Positions 32,321 to 39,771 of a stretch of 64,000 bases of DNA are shown here, piece after piece. The position numbers and the translations under genes were made by a program. Origin of the DNA: Tabrizicola thermarum (GTDB lineage Bacteria; Pseudomonadota; Alphaproteobacteria; Rhodobacterales; Rhodobacteraceae). How positions within the stretch are numbered: the first letter of the stretch is position 1; each line of letters opens with the position of its first letter. The stretch covers positions 1-64,000 of the forward strand of contig NZ_QMJY01000014.1 of assembly GCF_003574395.1 (NCBI RefSeq), read 5' to 3'. The notes below the pieces were generated by a model that was not told where the DNA came from, did no database searches, and saw only the letters and a list, made by a program, of their open reading frames with translations.

Positions 32321-33307
32321 ATGCCTGCCAGCCGCCTGACTGTGGTCGTGACGCGACGCCTGCCCGAAGTGGTCGAGACGCGGATGAAAGAGCTGTTCGA
32401 CGTCGAACTGCGCGACCCGGACCTGGCCATGACGCGCGAGGAACTGGCCGACGCGATGCGGCGGGCGGATGTGCTGGTGCCGACGATCACCGACACGATC
32501 GACGCGGGCCTTCTGGCGCAGGCGGGCGAGAAGCTGAAGCTGATCGCCAATTACGGGGCGGGGGTCGACCATATCGACGTGGCAACGGCGCGGCAGCGGG
32601 GGATACTCGTGTCCAACACCCCCGGCGTGTCCACCGAGGATACCGCCGACATGGTGATGGCGCTGATGCTGGCGGTGATCCGCCGCATCCCCGAGGGGTT
32701 GCGGATCATGCAGTCGGGCAGCTGGACCGGCTGGTCGCCGATGGCCAATCTGGGCGGCCGGCTGGGCGGTCGGCGGCTGGGGATCCTGGGGATGGGCCGG
32801 ATCGGCCAGGCGGTCGCGCGGCGGGCGCGGGCCTTCGGGCTGCAAGTGCATTACCACAACCGCAAACGCCTGCGCCCCGAGATCGAGGCCGAGCACGAGG
32901 CGACCTGGTGGGAAAGCCTGGACCAGATGCTGGCGCGGATGGACATCGTTTCGGTCAACTGCCCGCATACGCCCTCGACCTTCCACCTGCTGAACGCGCG
33001 GCGGCTGAAGCTGATGAAGCCGACAGCGGTAGTGGTGAACACCTCGCGCGGCGAGGTGATCGACCAGAACGCCCTGACCCGGGCGCTGCGGGCCGGAGAG
33101 CTGGCCGGGGCGGGGCTTGACGTCTACGAACAGGGCACCGACATCAACCCGCGCCTGCTGGAACTGCCCAACGTCGTCCTTTTGCCGCACATGGGCTCGG
33201 CCACGCTGGAAGGCCGGATCGAGATGGGCGAGAAGGTCATCATCAACATCAAGACCTTCGCTGATGGCCACCGACCGCCGGATCAGGTCGTCCCCGGCAT
33301 GTTCTGA
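32321..33307 (+). CDS. D-2-hydroxyacid dehydrogenase (glyoxylate reductase-like)
   Basis: A 328-residue NAD(P)H-dependent enzyme. The nucleotide-binding site GILGMGRIGQAVARRA lies mid-protein, with the active-site Arg in NTSRGEVIDQNAL and the Glu/His pair in the late ELPNVVLLPHMGSAT segment. The glyoxylate/hydroxypyruvate reductase branch is favoured by NYGAGVDHIDV, but the substrate is not certain. The start at 32321 follows GGGGAGATCGCC. It lies directly upstream of the first small-protein cassette. Confidence 0.9.
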   Translation: MPASRLTVVVTRRLPEVVETRMKELFDVELRDPDLAMTREELADAMRRADVLVPTITDTIDAGLLAQAGEKLKLIANYGAGVDHIDVATARQRGILVSNTPGVSTEDTADMVMALMLAVIRRIPEGLRIMQSGSWTGWSPMANLGGRLGGRRLGILGMGRIGQAVARRARAFGLQVHYHNRKRLRPEIEAEHEATWWESLDQMLARMDIVSVNCPHTPSTFHLLNARRLKLMKPTAVVVNTSRGEVIDQNALTRALRAGELAGAGLDVYEQGTDINPRLLELPNVVLLPHMGSATLEGRIEMGEKVIINIKTFADGHRPPDQVVPGMF

Positions 33308-33511
33308 CCGCAGCCGCGAGGCACGTCGTGCCGCATGGGTTGTGTCCGAACCCTTGGCTTCCACAACCTGGTGGCGAAGCTCCCCATTTTTCTGTGGAGA
33401 AACTGTTTCCACTGGTGCGGATTGGATTGCGGCGCACTGTCCCGCAGACTAAGCGTCGGGGACGAAGCTGCGGCCCTGGAGCCGCAGCCGTCGGGACATG
33501 GAGAGAAAAGA

Positions 33512-33739
33512 ATGCAGGAATTCCTGAAAGCGGCCGTGATTGCCGCCACATCGCTTGGCGCCTCGGTCGCTCATGCCGGCGGTCCGGTCATCATCGAGGA
33601 AGAGGGCCAGCCGGAAGTCGTCGCCGAGTCGCCCCGTTCGGGCTGGATCGTGCCGGTCGTGATCGGCCTGGCGCTGGTCTGCGCCATCGCGTGCGGTGGC
33701 GGCGATGATGATCCGGCACCCGATACGGGAAGCAAATAA
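33512..33739 (+). CDS. Tandem small exported protein, copy A
   Basis: A 75-residue protein with GGAGAG before the start. A signal peptide (cleavage after AHA) exposes GGPVIIEEEG. The core continues to a membrane helix starting at GWIVPVV and closing CAIACG, and ends in a short acidic tail (GGDDDPAPDTGSK). No known family is recognised. It is the first of four consecutive paralogues; the 40 residues from GGPV to ACG differ from the other copies at only five positions. An inner-membrane protein with a periplasmic acidic N-terminus is predicted. Confidence 0.8.
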   Translation: MQEFLKAAVIAATSLGASVAHAGGPVIIEEEGQPEVVAESPRSGWIVPVVIGLALVCAIACGGGDDDPAPDTGSK

Positions 33740-33746
33740 GTCCAAT

Positions 33747-33781
33747 CCGATCTGTCGTGCGCCCCCCCCGGGCCAGATCGG
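33747..33781 (+). terminator. Hairpin after copy A
   Basis: CCGATCTG at 33747-33754 pairs with CAGATCGG at 33774-33781 across a C-rich 19-base loop, eight bases after the stop of copy A. No T-run follows, so it is only a possible terminator. Confidence 0.35.
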
Positions 33782-33991
33782 GGACGCCTTCCGAAAGCCT
33801 TCTGGCAGACTGACTTGCTGGACGCACATGCGACCAGCGGGGCGGTTACTGTTGCAATTGGGCCAAATTCTGCCACGGATTTGACCCGGCAACCACGAAT
33901 CCGTTGTGCCGATCCTGTCACCTGCCTAGCGTTTGACTCGGGCCGGTGGGTGCCGGTACCGGAAGTCTCCGGACAACAGAAAGGACACTCC

Positions 33992-34219
33992 ATGATGAAA
34001 TCTACCGCGCCGTTGCTGGCGCTTGCGATGACCGCGTCCTCTGCCTTCGCGGGCGGCCCGGTCGTTGTCGAGGAGGAAGGCCAACCGGAAGTCGTCGCGG
34101 AATCGCCGCGCTCGGGCTGGATCGTCCCCGTGGTTGTCGGCCTGGTGCTGATCTGCGCCATTGCCTGCGGCAATGACGATGAGGAAACCGGTCCGCCGCC
34201 GCCTACGCCGGCTCCGTGA
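33992..34219 (+). CDS. Tandem small exported protein, copy B
   Basis: A 75-residue paralogue of copy A with the same layout: signal peptide ending SAFA, acidic EEEGQPEVVAESPRSG segment, one membrane helix (WIVPVVVGLVLICAIAC) and a hydrophilic tail that ends in prolines (GPPPPTPAP). A GAAAGGAC ribosome binding site lies seven bases before the ATG pair. The 252-base gap to copy A contains its own leader, so each copy is probably transcribed separately. Confidence 0.8.
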   Translation: MMKSTAPLLALAMTASSAFAGGPVVVEEEGQPEVVAESPRSGWIVPVVVGLVLICAIACGNDDEETGPPPPTPAP

Positions 34220-34251
34220 CGCCCGGCTGAAGACCAACAACGCGATTTCCT

Positions 34252-34281
34252 GACGCGGCGGTCAGCGTGAAGCGCCGCGTC
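34252..34281 (+). terminator. Hairpin after copy B
   Basis: GACGCGGCG at 34252-34260 pairs with CGCCGCGTC at 34273-34281; the loop contains GCGTGA. The hairpin after copy D (35444-35473) has nearly the same sequence, so it travels with the gene cassette. The rest of the 34220-34701 gap holds no gene; the leader of copy C occupies its end. Confidence 0.55.
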
Positions 34282-34572
34282 AGTTCTTGCGTTCGCCGAA
34301 GCGGGCGCGCTGTGATGCCAAGCGGGTTTCGCGCTTTGCTCTTCCATCGCCACGCGGGCCTTGCTTTCCGACTGGCCGTGGCAGTTCGTCGCCGCCACCT
34401 TCGCTCCCGTCACTTTCGCAGTCTTTCCGGCCCTGCGACGACTGCTGTCAGCCTGTGCGGCGATCGGCGTGCCAGCCAGCACAGGCGGTTTCCCAGGCCC
34501 GCTTTGGTGCAGTCCTGCCGCGGGAAAGCGACCGGACGGCCGCCCGGCGAGCAGGAAACACGAAGCTGTGAG

Positions 34573-34626
34573 GCATCTTTGATACAGGTGCCGACTGTCG
34601 AACAGGACAGGCGGCAATCCGCTTGC
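34573..34626 (+). promoter_or_regulatory. Conserved leader block upstream of copy C
   Basis: GCATCTTTG near 34573 and CGGCAATCCGCTTGC at 34612-34626 recur in the same order upstream of copy D (35061-35109), where the second part reads CGGCAATTCCGCTTGC. Conservation of non-coding sequence suggests a promoter or regulator site copied along with the gene. Confidence 0.5.
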
Positions 34627-34701
34627 AATTCGTAAATTCCGATGCGATGCGAGTCTCATCCGATGGGGTGATGCCGTCGCGTGAAAGAAGGGAAAGTGGA
34701 A

Positions 34702-34908
34702 ATGAAACGTATTGCTGCATCTGTTCTGGCGCTCACCAGCGCGTTCAGCTCGACCGCCTTTGCTGGCGGCCCGGTCATGGTCGAAGAAGAAGGCCAGCCG
34801 GAAGTCGTTGCCGAATCGCCGCGTTCGGGCTGGATCGTTCCGGTCGTCGTCGGCCTGGTGCTGGTCTGCGCCATCGCCTGCGGAAACGACGACAACAACG
34901 GCGAATAA
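34702..34908 (+). CDS. Tandem small exported protein, copy C
   Basis: At 68 residues, the shortest copy. The signal peptide ends STAFA; the GGPVMVEEEG start, acidic linker and membrane helix match the other copies, but the tail is only GNDDNNGE. The ATG at 34702 follows GGGAAAGTGGA; a GTG at 34681 would add seven residues. Its leader is similar to that of copy D, making C and D the closest pair. Confidence 0.8.
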   Translation: MKRIAASVLALTSAFSSTAFAGGPVMVEEEGQPEVVAESPRSGWIVPVVVGLVLVCAIACGNDDNNGE

Positions 34909-34917
34909 TGTTCGGCC

Positions 34918-34952
34918 GTCGCGCGCCGGCTGAAATGTGACGGCCGCGCGAC
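34918..34952 (+). terminator. First hairpin after copy C
   Basis: GTCGCGCG at 34918-34925 pairs with CGCGCGAC at 34945-34952, ten bases after the stop of copy C. A stronger terminator follows at 34971. Confidence 0.45.
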
Positions 34953-34970
34953 CCGACATTGACAGGCCTT

Positions 34971-35003
34971 GACGGCGGCGCCTTGGCGCTGCCGTCTTTT
35001 TTT
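34971..35003 (+). terminator. Strong intrinsic terminator after copy C
   Basis: GACGGCGGCG pairs with CGCTGCCGTC (one G-T pair) over a CCTTGG loop, followed by a run of seven Ts. This is the clearest Rho-independent terminator in the window and separates copy C from copy D. Confidence 0.85.
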
Positions 35004-35060
35004 ATCGCCCGCCAGACTGCGGTCGCTCTGCCGCTTTGGCCTGCCGACAGGCGAACTGGT

Positions 35061-35109
35061 GCATCTTTGGCACAGCCTGTTGCATCTGTGCTGCGGCAAT
35101 TCCGCTTGC
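35061..35109 (+). promoter_or_regulatory. Conserved leader block upstream of copy D
   Basis: Carries the same GCATCTTTG and CGGCAATTCCGCTTGC elements as the leader of copy C, about 80 bases before the copy D start. A TTGGCAC...TTGC pair inside it resembles a sigma-54 site but the spacing is one base too long. Confidence 0.5.
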
Positions 35110-35189
35110 GCTTGAAGCGCGGGATGCATCGCGGGACTGTCGGGCGTCGGCCGGATCAGAGCCGCAAAAAAAGACATGAGGAAAAGCAG

Positions 35190-35417
35190 ATGAAGAAAAT
35201 TGCAACCGCCGCACTGGCGTTTTCGATCGCTTTCGGCACCACGGCCAGCTTTGCCGGTGGCCCGGTGGTCATCGAAGAGGAAGGCCAGCCGGAAGTCGTC
35301 GCAGAATCGCCCCGTTCGGGCTGGATCGTGCCGGTCGTCGTGGGCCTGGTGCTGGTCTGCGCCATCGCTTGCGGCAATGACGACGAAACCCCGACGCGGA
35401 CGGGTGTCCGCGGCTAA
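35190..35417 (+). CDS. Tandem small exported protein, copy D
   Basis: A 75-residue paralogue with a GAGGAAAAG ribosome binding site. The signal peptide ends TASFA, then GGPVVIEEEG, the invariant QPEVVAESPRSG, the membrane helix and a tail GNDDETPTRTGVRG. In all copies the helix ends with two cysteines three residues apart (CAIAC), possibly near the cytoplasmic face. No function can be assigned. Confidence 0.8.
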   Translation: MKKIATAALAFSIAFGTTASFAGGPVVIEEEGQPEVVAESPRSGWIVPVVVGLVLVCAIACGNDDETPTRTGVRG

Positions 35418-35443
35418 GGGTCTCTGGATCACTGCGTGATTTC

Positions 35444-35473
35444 GGCGCGGCGGTCCGCGTGACACGCCGCGCC
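35444..35473 (+). terminator. Hairpin after copy D
   Basis: GGCGCGGCG at 35444-35452 pairs with CGCCGCGCC at 35465-35473, followed by TTT. Loop and stem are close to those of the hairpin after copy B. Confidence 0.6.
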
Positions 35474-35540
35474 TTTCCCGGGCCGACCGCCGCCCTCCCC
35501 CGGTTCCGACCGTCGGGACCGGGGCACCTTGCGCAAACGC

Positions 35541-36256
35541 TCAGGCCCGGATGCGCGCGCCGTCCGGATCGTACGGCGGCGCCAGAGACAGGTCCGCGGG
35601 CGTCTCCTCCCCTGCGATGACCAGCGCATAGCGCCCTGCGCCCAGCCAGATGTCGGTCACGCCCGCCGGGTTGCGCACATAGCCAAGGCCGATGCTGGCC
35701 CCGACCGTATAGCCATACCCGCCCGAGGTGAGATAGCCAACCGGCTTGCCATCCCGCAGGATCGTCTCGCGCCCGACCAGCACCGCATCGGGGGCGGTCA
35801 CGGAAAAGCCCACCAGCCGCTTGCCCATGGGCTGAGCGACCTGCGCCTCCAGCGCCGCCCGTCCAAGGAAGGGCAGGCCGGATTTCAGCTTCACCGCCCA
35901 GCCCAGGCCCGCCTCGAAGGGTGTGTCGTTCGGCGTGATGTCCGCAGACCAGGCGCGATAGCCCTTTTCCAGCCGCAGGCTTTCCAGCGCCCGATACCCC
36001 ACCGGACGCAAGGCCGGATCCGCCGCGATCAGCCAGTCGTAGACCGTGCCCAGATCGCCAGTCGGGATGTGCAGCTCCCAGCCCAGTTCGCCGACATAGG
36101 TCACCCGCAACGCCCGGACCCGGACCCCGGCCACCGCGATCACACGCGCCGACCCGAAGGGCATGGCGGCGTTCGACAGGTCTGCCTCGGTGACACTGGC
36201 CAGCCGATGATGCCACCCCCGATGACGACGATCCGGGCCTGGGCTGGAAGGGTCAT
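35541..36256 (-). pseudogene. Dimethylglycine/sarcosine dehydrogenase-like oxidoreductase with large internal deletion
   Basis: The first 18 codons from 36256 read MTLPAQARIVVIGGGIIG, a classic FAD-binding start. After about 36200 the matching sequence jumps, in another frame, to the last third of the family: LASVTEADLSNAAMPFGSAR, then RALRVTYVGELGWELHIPTG and the GcvT-like C-terminal domain to the stop at 35541. Intact homologues are about 800 residues, so some 550 codons of FAD and folate domain are missing and the join is frameshifted. The remaining 207-codon open frame is unlikely to be functional. Confidence 0.8.
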
Positions 36257-36426: not shown

Positions 36427-36516
36427 GGAGACGTGGCCGAGTGGTCGAAGGCACGCCCCTGCTAAGGGCGCAGACCCGAAAGGGTCTCGAGGGTTCGAAT
36501 CCCTTCGTCTCCGCCA
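36427..36516 (+). tRNA. tRNA-Ser (anticodon GCT)
   Basis: A 90-base serine tRNA. Acceptor arms GGAGACG and CGTCTCC pair, the anticodon loop shows GCT flanked by CT and AA, the long class II variable arm (CAGACCCGAAAGGGTCTC) is present, the T-loop is GGTTCGAATCC and CCA is encoded. It decodes AGC/AGU. tRNA genes are common integration sites, and the sequence to its right is gene-poor and contains remnants. Confidence 0.97.
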
Positions 36517-37387: not shown

Positions 37388-38566
37388 ATGACGACACCGG
37401 AACTACAGAAGCGGGATGAACCCTCTGGAGAGGCCGCAATATCCTCTGCAGAGGCAGGTGAGCGACGTTTGCCAGCCGTGCGCCCGACACCTGTGTCTCC
37501 AGTCCCGAGGCCATCGAAGCGTATCTGGATCTGGACCGTTGGCCTGGTTCTGGCCGGGGGCGCGGGTCTCGGCCTTGTCCTGCAGCCTTGGGCGAGCGGT
37601 CCGGTGCCTGTTGCGGTCGAAACCGTCATGCCGGCGCCGGTGACACGGGTTCTGGCCGTGAACGGCAGGATCGAAGCCCTTCATTCGGTTGATGTGCGGG
37701 CGCAGGTTGGCGGCACGCTGGCCGATCTGTCGGTCGTCGAAGGCGACATTGTGCAATCAGGCGGGATTGTCGCGCGGATAGACTCCACTGCCCAGCAGGC
37801 TGTCCTGCGGCAGGCCATTGCGGGACTGGATGCCGCCCTGGTTGCTCAGGCGCAGGCGCAGGCGACCCTTGAACGGACGCGCGCGCTTGGGACCAATGTC
37901 GCCCGCACCGCACTGGAAAACGCAGAAACCGCCGCGCAGACGGCCGCACAGGAGGTGGCGCGCATGACGGCCTTGGTCGATCAGGCCAAGATCCAGCTTG
38001 CCAACTTCACCATTCGCGCACCGATGACCGGGACGGTTCTGACCCTGAATGTTGACCTGGGCCAGACCATCGACCCCACGACCGTGCTGATGACGATTGC
38101 CGATCTGGGCCAGCTGATCGTCGAGACGGATGTGGACGAGGCCTATGCCACGCAGATCCGGGCGGGCATGCCGGCCGTGTTGCAACTCTCCGGCGAGACG
38201 GCCACGCGCGAAGGCCGGGTGAGCTTTGTGTCGCAGCGAGTGGATGCAGCGACCGGCGGTCTGGCCGTGAAGCTTGCCTTTGCCGATCCGGTGATGGCGC
38301 CGGTCGGCCTGACGGTCACCGCCAACATCGTCATCGAGCAGCGCGACGCCGCGCTGACCGTGCCGCGCACCGCGCTGCGCACCGAGGATGGCAGGCCGGC
38401 GGTGCTGGTCGTCGCGGAAGGGATCGCCCGGACACGGCCGGTGAGCGTGATCGACTGGCCGGCCGCGCGGTTGATCGTGGCCGACGGGCTGGTGCCGGGT
38501 GACGTGCTGATCGTGGATGCGACCGGCATCGCGGACGGGCAGTCAGTGCGCATGGAGCAACCCTGA
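37388..38566 (+). CDS. Efflux periplasmic adaptor subunit (HlyD/MacA-like)
   Basis: A 392-residue membrane-fusion protein. A cytoplasmic start of about 45 residues precedes one membrane segment (IWIWTVGLVLAGGAGLGLVL). A lipoyl half (IEALHSVDVRAQVGGTL), a helical hairpin rich in Ala/Gln (residues about 135-205), the second lipoyl half (APMTGTVLTLNVDLGQ) and a beta-barrel follow. It links an inner-membrane ABC exporter to the outside. GGGAGAAG precedes the start. It forms an operon with the permease and the broken ATPase gene. Confidence 0.88.
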   Translation: MTTPELQKRDEPSGEAAISSAEAGERRLPAVRPTPVSPVPRPSKRIWIWTVGLVLAGGAGLGLVLQPWASGPVPVAVETVMPAPVTRVLAVNGRIEALHSVDVRAQVGGTLADLSVVEGDIVQSGGIVARIDSTAQQAVLRQAIAGLDAALVAQAQAQATLERTRALGTNVARTALENAETAAQTAAQEVARMTALVDQAKIQLANFTIRAPMTGTVLTLNVDLGQTIDPTTVLMTIADLGQLIVETDVDEAYATQIRAGMPAVLQLSGETATREGRVSFVSQRVDAATGGLAVKLAFADPVMAPVGLTVTANIVIEQRDAALTVPRTALRTEDGRPAVLVVAEGIARTRPVSVIDWPAARLIVADGLVPGDVLIVDATGIADGQSVRMEQP

Positions 38567-39771
38567 TGCTCTATGGCCTGAAGATCGCCCTGCGCTACCT
38601 GACCGCGAGCAAGGCGCAGACGGCCCTTCTGGTGCTGGGCGTCGCCGTGGGTGTGTTCATCTTCATCTTCATGTCGGCTCTGATCGGGGGGCTGGCAGAG
38701 TTCATCCTGGCGCGCACCGTGGGAGACATCAGCCATGTCACGATCAAGGCCGAGGATGCCGACCCTGCGATCCTGATCTCGGCCGAAGGACATGTCCTTG
38801 CCGCCGTCGAACGGGGCCGTGCCCGCACCGCCACGCTGGCCGACGCCGCGACCTGGGTTCCATTGATCGAGACGGTGCCCGGCGTCATCGCGGTCTCGCC
38901 GCAGATCACGGGTGCAGGGTTCCTGACGCGCGGGGCGCAGGTGGCGCAGGTCAGCGTGACGGGACTGGAACCGGGGCGGGAATCCGCGATCCTGAATCTG
39001 GACGGCTACATGGTCGAAGGGACGGCCCGTCTGGGGTCGGGTCTGATCGTGCTGGGGCAAACTCTGGCCGATGACCTGTCGCTGCGGCTTGGCCAGACCC
39101 TGCGTCTGCAATCCTCGGGCGGTGTCTCGATGGTGCTGACGCTGAGCGGCATCTACAAGACCGGCAACGGCATGATGGATCGCAGCAGCATCTTTGTCAG
39201 CCTGCCCACCGCACGGACGCTGTTCGCCCTACCGCAAGGCGTGACCCGGATCGAGATCAAGCTGAATGATCTCAATTCCGCGGACGCCACGGCGCTGCGG
39301 ATCCGTGCGCTGACGGGGCTTGACGCCGTGCCATGGACTGACGGCGCCGAGCAACTGATGGAGGCGCTGAACGCGCAGGCTCAGACCGGGTATTTTCTCA
39401 AATCCTTTGCACTCGTCACCATCGTGATCGGCGTCGCCTCGGCGCTGCTTCTGTCCACCTACCGGCGCCGGCCGGAGATCGGGATCATGCGGGCGATGGG
39501 GGCCGGACGCGGGTTCGTGGTCTTCGTGTTCGTGACTCAGGGCGCGATGGTGGGGCTTCTGGGCGGGCTGTCTGGGGCAGCACTCGGCTATCTGGCGCTG
39601 CTGCCATTTCCCACGCGCGAGGCCTTCCGGCCCGGCACCCTGCCCATGGATATCACCCAAGGTTCCTACGGATTGGCGATCATCCTGACCGTCCTGGGCG
39701 CGGTCCTCGCCTCGATCCTGCCGGCGCGCGCCGCGGCCCGGGTCGATCCGGTCACGGCGATCGGGCAATGA
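38566..39771 (+). CDS. ABC transporter permease, FtsX/MacB type
   Basis: A 401-residue permease with one N-terminal membrane segment (ALLVLGVAVGVFIFIFMSAL), a large periplasmic domain, and three C-terminal segments in the FtsX domain (about 280-395). GIMRAMGAGRGFVVFVFVTQ is the usual cytoplasmic loop contacting the ATPase. The start shares one base with the adaptor stop (TGATG), and the end overlaps the ATPase start by four bases. Substrates of this family include lipoproteins, toxins and macrolides; it cannot be specified here. Confidence 0.87.
   Translation: MLYGLKIALRYLTASKAQTALLVLGVAVGVFIFIFMSALIGGLAEFILARTVGDISHVTIKAEDADPAILISAEGHVLAAVERGRARTATLADAATWVPLIETVPGVIAVSPQITGAGFLTRGAQVAQVSVTGLEPGRESAILNLDGYMVEGTARLGSGLIVLGQTLADDLSLRLGQTLRLQSSGGVSMVLTLSGIYKTGNGMMDRSSIFVSLPTARTLFALPQGVTRIEIKLNDLNSADATALRIRALTGLDAVPWTDGAEQLMEALNAQAQTGYFLKSFALVTIVIGVASALLLSTYRRRPEIGIMRAMGAGRGFVVFVFVTQGAMVGLLGGLSGAALGYLALLPFPTREAFRPGTLPMDITQGSYGLAIILTVLGAVLASILPARAAARVDPVTAIGQ

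What the first reader, a model, noticed from the sequence alone, without database searches (positions are those of the whole stretch)
33512..35473. Tandem array of four near-identical small exported membrane proteins
Four genes of 68-75 codons lie head to tail in 2 kb. From GGPV to ACG (40 residues), 35 positions are identical in all copies, including EEEGQ, PEVVAESPRSG and the Cys-xx-Ala-Cys end of the single helix, while signal peptides and tails differ freely. Each copy has its own ribosome binding site and a hairpin after it. This shows selection on the acidic linker and helix, and repeated duplication. No known family is recognised by me.
Basis: partly seen in the sequence, partly recalled or inferred. 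Interest (0 to 1): 0.82.

Follow-up and report, generated by a model that had tools for sequence, protein, structure and literature searches.

The report
Array of matched mini membrane proteins
Four tiny exported membrane proteins sit side by side in a purple-bacterium relative; they belong to a large unnamed family whose longer cousins carry a phage-type self-cutting chaperone, and copies inside one genome tend to keep their middle part alike while the rest drifts.

Summary
In detail: four ORFs (33512-33739, 33992-34219, 34702-34908, 35190-35417), 35 of 40 core residues identical, 21 of 26 variable core bases at third codon positions. The window is from a Tabrizicola/Rhodobacter-like bacterium (inferred). 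Relatives occur in 31 of 32 genomes of the genus and 185 of 296 of the family sample; in the class sample all 3 matches of 192 genomes are in that family. (1) In the genus 13 of 14 Peptidase_S74 matches are fused to the end of this signal-linker-helix module, with Ser and Lys of the self-cleavage site; the window copies stop about where that domain would start. (2) In one orthologue class cores are closer to paralogues of the same genome than to orthologues in 12 of 13 genomes, though not in two other classes; window copy 1 is a mosaic. (3) A 20-bp palindrome lies upstream of 37 of 111 copies and of 23 of 26 readable orthologues of a cell-wall hydrolase. Best reading: small envelope membrane proteins, probably oligomeric (trimer inferred from the S74 cousins), kept matched within genomes. 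Function is untested.

The parts
33512..33739 (+). copy 1, 75 aa; signal peptide and start of tail like the first copy of relative G010, core like the other window copies (mosaic)
33992..34219 (+). copy 2, 75 aa (alternative start 33995)
34702..34908 (+). copy 3, 68 aa
35190..35417 (+). copy 4, 75 aa; AlphaFold2 helices 3-16 (signal) and 46-62 (membrane helix), rest without structure, mean pLDDT 65.8
33559..33706 (+). 148-nt repeated core of copy 1; the other three begin at 34033, 34746 and 35237
33849..33868 (+). upstream palindrome-like box of copy 2, 12 of 16 positions, shuffle fraction 0.005
34568..34587 (+). box of copy 3, 11 of 16, shuffle fraction 0.055 (weak)
35056..35096 (+). two adjacent box-like sites of copy 4 (35056-35075 and 35077-35096; best 13 of 16)
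34971..34996 (+). intrinsic-terminator-like stem with T run after copy 3
35446..35471 (+). GC-rich hairpin after copy 4, repeated (88%) at 34254-34279 after copy 2; no T run

Best explanation
A Rhodobacteraceae family of Sec-exported micro-proteins. SHOWN by sequence: signal peptide ending mostly in A-x-A, acidic arm (GGPVVxEE..), Ser/Gly/Pro-capped hydrophobic helix usually ending in CxxxC, short acidic tail; arrays; longer cousins with a C-terminal Peptidase_S74 (intramolecular chaperone, ICA) domain; cores more alike within genomes than expected from synonymous divergence. INFERRED: after signal cleavage a peptide of about 50 residues stays in the inner membrane, arm in the periplasm, tail inside. 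In the long cousins the ICA domain would trimerise in the cytoplasm and cut itself off at S|D-x-R-L-K, leaving a product of 48-51 residues, the size of the mature short proteins; the window copies are thus versions without the assembly domain. Copies of one genome probably enter the same (mixed, probably trimeric) membrane assembly, so cores tend to match; gene conversion of the core plus selection keeps them matched while each copy keeps its own signal peptide, tail and upstream region. The upstream box shared with a cell-wall hydrolase suggests a role in envelope maintenance.
For: S74 fused to the module in 13 of 14 genus matches and, by reading, in 6 of 8 matches from a family-wide sample of 150 genomes. 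A core HMM without signal peptide finds the genus long forms at E 1.2e-14 to 5.1e-8 among 10909 ORF segments. One array (G042, L080) holds four short copies and one long copy with nearly the same core. Ser lies 48-51 aa after the mature N-terminus in 13 long forms; mature short forms median 51 (35-67, n=111). S and K at +5 are the spacing of S578/K583 in MYRF, the dyad shared with endosialidases (passages of PMC3742443). Within/between-genome core identity 0.79/0.58, signal peptide 0.46/0.42. At synonymous divergence 0.2-0.5, core pN is lower within genomes than between by 0.089 (0.044-0.145) and 0.063 (0.040-0.090) in two clades. Hydrophobic 19-mer in 111 of 111. Box: log ratio 317 against 67-71 in three shuffled sets; hydrolase orthologues 23 of 26.
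Against: The own genome has no S74 match, so the window copies must work without one. S74 is rare in the family (8 of 150). Trimerisation of short forms is untested. The 13 genus long forms lack the CxxxC seen in 106 of 111 short copies, though the distant long form L125 has it. Distant long forms score weakly or not at all with the core HMM. No PDB sequence matches a long form. In two of three orthologue classes the core is nearer to orthologues than to paralogues (pN 0.171 against 0.366, 0.133 against 0.212), so matching is not general. 74 of 111 copies do not pass the palindrome test, window copy 1 among them (0.18). Upstream neighbours are ordinary metabolic genes. No expression data.
Confidence: 0.45

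Rival explanations
1. Concerted evolution without function for sameness: ectopic gene conversion between near neighbours homogenises the cores, and the proteins act independently as redundant, differently regulated copies of one small membrane protein.
For: Copy 1 is a mosaic: 30-nt windows give 0.67-0.83 identity to G010's first copy in the signal part, 0.40-0.77 in the core where the other window copies reach 0.73-0.97, and 0.90 to G010 again at the start of the tail against 0.40-0.60. In the VMALT class paralogue pS is lower in the core (0.359) than in the signal peptide (0.606).
Against: In matched pS bins core pN is at least twofold lower within than between genomes in 9 of 12 bins, which conversion alone should not give; but the gap shrinks in two high-divergence bins of the RSGW clade and reverses in the highest (n=3).
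Confidence: 0.3
2. Internal lipobox proteins: the helix plus C-GNDD resembles a type II signal peptide and the second Cys is lipidated.
For: CxxxC in 106 of 111 copies, usually followed by G and acidic residues. A weak sub-threshold hit to NCBIfam 'lipo-invert' in copies 1 and 2.
Against: CxxxC is absent in 5 of 111 short copies (one cut by a contig end, one apparently shifted in frame), in the 13 genus long forms and in most distant cousins read; after an exported signal peptide the Cys would face the cytoplasm (inference); the NCBIfam model gave 0 of 96 genomes over cut-off, and sub-cut-off hits in 5 of 14 control genomes.
Confidence: 0.07
3. Tandem type I toxin cassettes (like the E. coli ldr arrays, recalled) or bacteriocin-like exported peptides.
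For: Short hydrophobic proteins in tandem cassettes with long spacers; GG after the signal; an HlyD-like and a MacB/FtsX-like export gene lie about 2 kb downstream (37388-39771).
Against: Sec-type signal ending A-x-A (98 of 111, the other 13 S/T/V-x-A); no RNA family near its gathering score; up to 11 family matches per genome; the export genes did not cluster with genes beside other arrays in the 60 clusters listed.
Confidence: 0.08

Closest known systems
MYRF (eukaryotic membrane transcription factor with ICA domain)
   Same: Membrane protein whose S74/ICA domain trimerises and self-cleaves (passages and abstracts); long cousins here keep Ser and Lys at +5
   Different: Here ICA follows the helix, the protein is tiny, there is no DNA-binding part, and the window copies have no ICA at all
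Phage tail/virion proteins with C-terminal Peptidase_S74
   Same: Same C-terminal domain in the long cousins (Pfam over cut-off in 5 of 5; best PHROG for one of them phrog_6121, virion structural protein)
   Different: No fibre or receptor-binding part; the domain sits on a signal peptide and membrane helix
E. coli ldr/ibs type I toxin arrays (recalled)
   Same: Tandem cassettes of short hydrophobic proteins
   Different: Sec-type signal, no antisense RNA family found, acidic conserved arm
CenKR envelope regulon of Rhodobacter sphaeroides (PMC9275681: passages, section 11 part 1 and section 12 read)
   Same: RSP_1860, a cell wall hydrolase, is listed there as a direct CenR target; a Hydrolase_2 gene here shares an upstream box with the array
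   Different: Published CenR motif is a direct repeat TGA-N8-TGA; the box here is a palindrome CTGTTGCA-N4-TGCAACAG; orthology to RSP_1860 not tested

Membership tests
Peptidase_S74 / ICA proteins | C-terminal S74 domain over Pfam cut-off | tested here: not met
   Window copies: none; own genome 0 matches. Long cousins: met, 5 of 5 tested
Peptidase_S74 / ICA proteins | Ser and Lys of the self-cleavage dyad at S-D-x-R-L-K | tested here: not met
   Absent from window copies; present in the 13 genus long forms
Peptidase_S74 / ICA proteins | Trimerisation and self-cleavage | not testable with these tools
   Needs protein
Bacterial lipoproteins | Lipobox at the end of the N-terminal signal peptide | tested here: not met
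   Signal ends A-x-A before GG in 98 of 111 copies; the Cys pair lies at the end of the second helix
Type I toxin-antitoxin arrays | Antisense RNA to the toxin mRNA | tested here: inconclusive
   No Rfam family near its gathering score in 33300-35600, both strands; an undescribed RNA would be missed
NCBIfam NF058595 lipo-invert | Score over curated cut-off 37 | tested here: not met
   14.2 bits (copy 1) and 15.7 bits (copy 2)
CenR regulon | TGA-N8-TGA site bound by CenR | not tested
   Only a link through a cell wall hydrolase; published motif differs in form

The most novel reading that the evidence does not exclude
The short copies and the ICA-bearing copies build mixed trimeric membrane micro-assemblies: an ICA copy, or formerly an ICA ancestor, nucleates trimers and then cuts itself out, and ICA-less copies join. 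The need to fit one another drives within-genome matching of the helix core by conversion and selection: a bacterial, envelope-regulated use of a phage assembly domain in which most members have since discarded the domain.
Probability: 0.22. Interest if true: 0.8.

Novelty: new variant of a known kind. Interest (0 to 1): 0.6.

Why it matters
A family found in 185 of 296 sampled Rhodobacteraceae genomes has no curated model that catches the window copies in Pfam or NCBIfam. It offers a natural case where one segment of a gene is homogenised between paralogues while signal peptide, tail and upstream region stay private, and it links cellular micro-proteins to a phage-type self-cutting chaperone. 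That makes oligomeric state, cleavage and regulation directly testable with 70-residue proteins.

Tried and rejected
NCBIfam lipo-invert lead: followed with a class-wide search, 0 of 96 genomes over cut-off and sub-cut-off hits in 5 of 14 controls, dropped. DUF6479, DUF4148, Phage_OMP, Cas_Csy2, Cas5f: below cut-off or weak, dropped. phrog_542 (copy 3 E 0.00047, copy 4 E 0.012, residues 1-47, unknown function) is judged signal-peptide-driven and was not pursued. A sigma-54 promoter: spacing wrong by one base by eye, not pursued. Sigma-70 scan: 0 promoter-like sites; a TTGTGC/TTGAGC-N17-TAGCGT pattern seen by eye was not tested. Plasmid and phage collections: no match to copy 4; no plasmid match to a distant short cousin; a long-form query matched 73 plasmid records, the 20 listed from about residue 71 on, i.e. 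the S74 part; the three I opened have other N-termini. PDB by sequence: no match to one long form. CenR: palindrome differs from the published direct repeat, kept as a lead only. Literature: searches listed no paper that I recognised, from titles and abstract starts, as about this family; the library holds open-licence papers only.

Dropped rows and limits: the 111 short copies are distinct protein sequences from fetched loci, not every match; two of them are a contig-end fragment and an apparent frame shift. The VMALT class is picked by its signal peptide, so its signal likeness is partly by construction; the 'first' class is picked partly by its core. The motif run used 40 starts for real and 12 for shuffled data, with single-base shuffles, and upstream regions of related copies share descent, so the log ratio overstates the contrast. 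One search read 26 of 30 hydrolase loci (4 lacked the FEARGE anchor; two further genomes gave no locus); a first, wrongly oriented version was discarded. One search printed only its first 71 rows.

Full report
What is there. The window lies in G000:C9 of a 3.65-Mb genome whose named relatives are Tabrizicola, Rhodobacter and related MAGs. Four ORFs stand head to tail with spacers of about 250, 480 and 280 bases: 33512-33739, 33992-34219, 34702-34908 and 35190-35417. The 40-residue core from GGPV to ACG has 5 variable positions; its DNA varies at 4, 1 and 21 first, second and third codon positions. Pairwise core pN is 0.02-0.06 and pS 0.31-0.48, whereas signal peptides reach pN 0.29-0.56. Transcription is untested.

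Family and range. A profile of the four copies finds relatives in 31 of 32 genomes of the genus, up to 11 matches per genome, often in tandem. A wider profile finds them in 185 of 296 genomes of the family sample. In the class sample of 192 genomes 3 match: the own genome and two others of the same family. In the truncated listing I count 15 genomes with two or more matches within about 2 kb on one strand. Distant cousins read like MKKLxLAAAL..ASTAFAGGMxEPVxEPEVVV..SSSSGGIxVPLLLLxxVAAAVASN. No Pfam or NCBIfam model reaches its cut-off for the window copies, none of NCBIfam for three distant short cousins, and PADLOC gives one weak hit (E 0.068). The array is at a syntenic place: upstream genes (TPP enzyme, aminotransferase, TetR regulator, cation efflux) recur in 17 of 21 regions compared, window included (named). 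They are ordinary, so synteny rather than an operon explains the neighbourhood.

Anatomy. Of 111 distinct short copies in fetched loci, 98 end the signal peptide in A-x-A before GG and 13 in S/T/V-x-A; 106 have CxxxC at the helix end; of those 106 all have a net acidic linker and 104 a net acidic tail. All 111 have a 19-residue stretch of hydropathy 1.82 or more. AlphaFold2 on copy 4 with 13 sequences gives two helices (3-16, 46-62) and no other structure at mean pLDDT 65.8 and pTM 0.31, as expected for a signal peptide and one membrane helix.

Link to an intramolecular chaperone. Peptidase_S74 (PF13884) matches 11 of 32 genomes of the genus with 14 matches. Reading the frames, 13 of 14 are fused to the end of the same signal-AGGPVVxEE-linker-helix-acidic module; the exception (L105) looks like a phage tail protein. 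In a family-wide sample 8 of 150 genomes match; by reading, 6 of the 8 carry a signal-linker-helix module and two (L119, L120) do not. A profile of the cores without signal peptide, run on 10909 ORF segments of the fetched loci, places the genus long forms at E 1.2e-14 to 5.1e-8; the more distant L087/L124, L126 and L080 score only 0.0014-0.019 and L121, L122 and L125 are not found at E 1. Five of five long forms tested exceed the Pfam cut-off. The site S-D-x-R-L-K has Lys five after Ser, the spacing of S578 and K583 in MYRF, the dyad shared with endosialidases (passages of PMC3742443). In 13 long forms the Ser lies 48-51 residues after the mature N-terminus, and mature short forms have a median of 51. 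In G042 one array holds a long copy beside four short copies with nearly the same core. Four other genus loci (L106, L107, L110, L117) show a short family gene within about 1 kb before a long one; loci are about 3 kb, so others may be out of view. The own genome has no S74 match.

Concerted evolution. Over 111 copies, core identity is 0.79 within and 0.58 between genomes; signal-peptide identity 0.46 and 0.42 (three loci were assigned to other genomes in later calls). In the class with signal MKKLxxSVMALTLG (13 genomes; picked by that signal) the signal peptide is nearer to orthologues in 13 of 13, partly by construction, and the core nearer to paralogues in 12 of 13, G026 being the exception. 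Against this, in the 'first' and 'second' classes the core is nearer to orthologues (pN 0.171 against 0.366 and 0.133 against 0.212); the 'first' class was picked partly by its divergent core, and such copies are among the paralogues of the second. In pS bins, core pN is at least twofold lower within genomes in 9 of 12 bins over two clades; the gap shrinks in two RSGW bins and reverses in the highest, n=3. Window copy 1 shows an event: its signal peptide and start of tail match the first gene of G010 (0.67-0.83 and 0.90), its core the window's other copies (0.73-0.97 against 0.40-0.77 for G010's first gene); G010's other copies match that core nearly as well (0.63-0.97), so the donor and date are open.

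Regulation. EM motif search on 103 non-redundant of 111 upstream stretches gave the palindrome CTGTTGCA-N4-TGCAACAG (log ratio 317; three shuffled sets 67-71, run with fewer starts); 39 of the 45 best sites listed start 119-142 bases before the gene. A shuffle test finds it in 37 of 111 copies; in the window copies 2 and 4 pass, copy 3 is marginal (0.055), copy 1 fails (0.18). With up to two mismatches the genus has 24 sites against 8 for the reversed control. Seven of the 24 lie before a gene for a Hydrolase_2 cell wall hydrolase (G000, G001, G003, G006, G016, G021, G031) and an eighth (G013) does so by coordinates only. Three lie between a porin-like gene and a lipoprotein-like gene, one before an OMP_b-brl gene and one in an array (the porin fragment tested is below its Pfam cut-off, the lipoprotein fragment had no hit). 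Of 26 readable hydrolase orthologues 23 carry the box, 20 of them starting 108-116 bases before the gene. In R. sphaeroides a cell wall hydrolase, RSP_1860, is listed as a direct target of the envelope regulator CenR (PMC9275681, section 11 part 1 and section 12); its published motif is a direct repeat, so CenR is only a candidate.

Mechanism and confidence. Shown: signal peptide and membrane-helix pattern, family, S74-bearing cousins, within-genome likeness of cores in part of the family, mosaic copy, shared box. Inferred: orientation in the membrane, trimers, mixed assemblies, an envelope role. I put 0.45 on the whole statement, about 0.9 on the shown part. The main rival is gene conversion without any need for sameness (0.3).

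Novelty. Known parts (S74 domain, small membrane proteins, gene conversion) are combined in a way I found no paper on (searches; open-licence library only). I call it a new variant of a known kind.

Noticed in passing
window 35541-36164 (-), with tRNA-Ser at 36427-36516: Downstream of the array stands only a 207-aa frame whose homologues beside other arrays have a median of about 810 aa (cluster 47); a tRNA-Ser gene follows, as at a rearranged or integration site.
   Followed up: no
window 37388-39771 (+): HlyD-like membrane fusion gene and MacB/FtsX-like permease gene about 2 kb downstream of the array; not in the 60 neighbour clusters listed.
   Followed up: no
L104 (G000:C75), from 1498: A protein that looks like an outer-membrane barrel begins with the same AGGPVVVAEDPVV stretch after its signal peptide as the array proteins.
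   Followed up: no
L152:1501-1520 and 1611-2234: Palindrome ending 90 bases before the start of a Hydrolase_2 cell wall hydrolase; box found in 23 of 26 readable orthologues.
   Followed up: yes
L128, L129 (Rhizobium plasmids): S74-like domain at the end of lipoprotein-like proteins with Gly-Ser-rich repeats, next to an isoprenylcysteine carboxylmethyltransferase-family gene, in L129 also beside a caspase-family gene.
   Followed up: no
G000:C8:245017-245214 (L006): A lone, more distant fifth member in the own genome, with CVVMC and no upstream box.
   Followed up: partly
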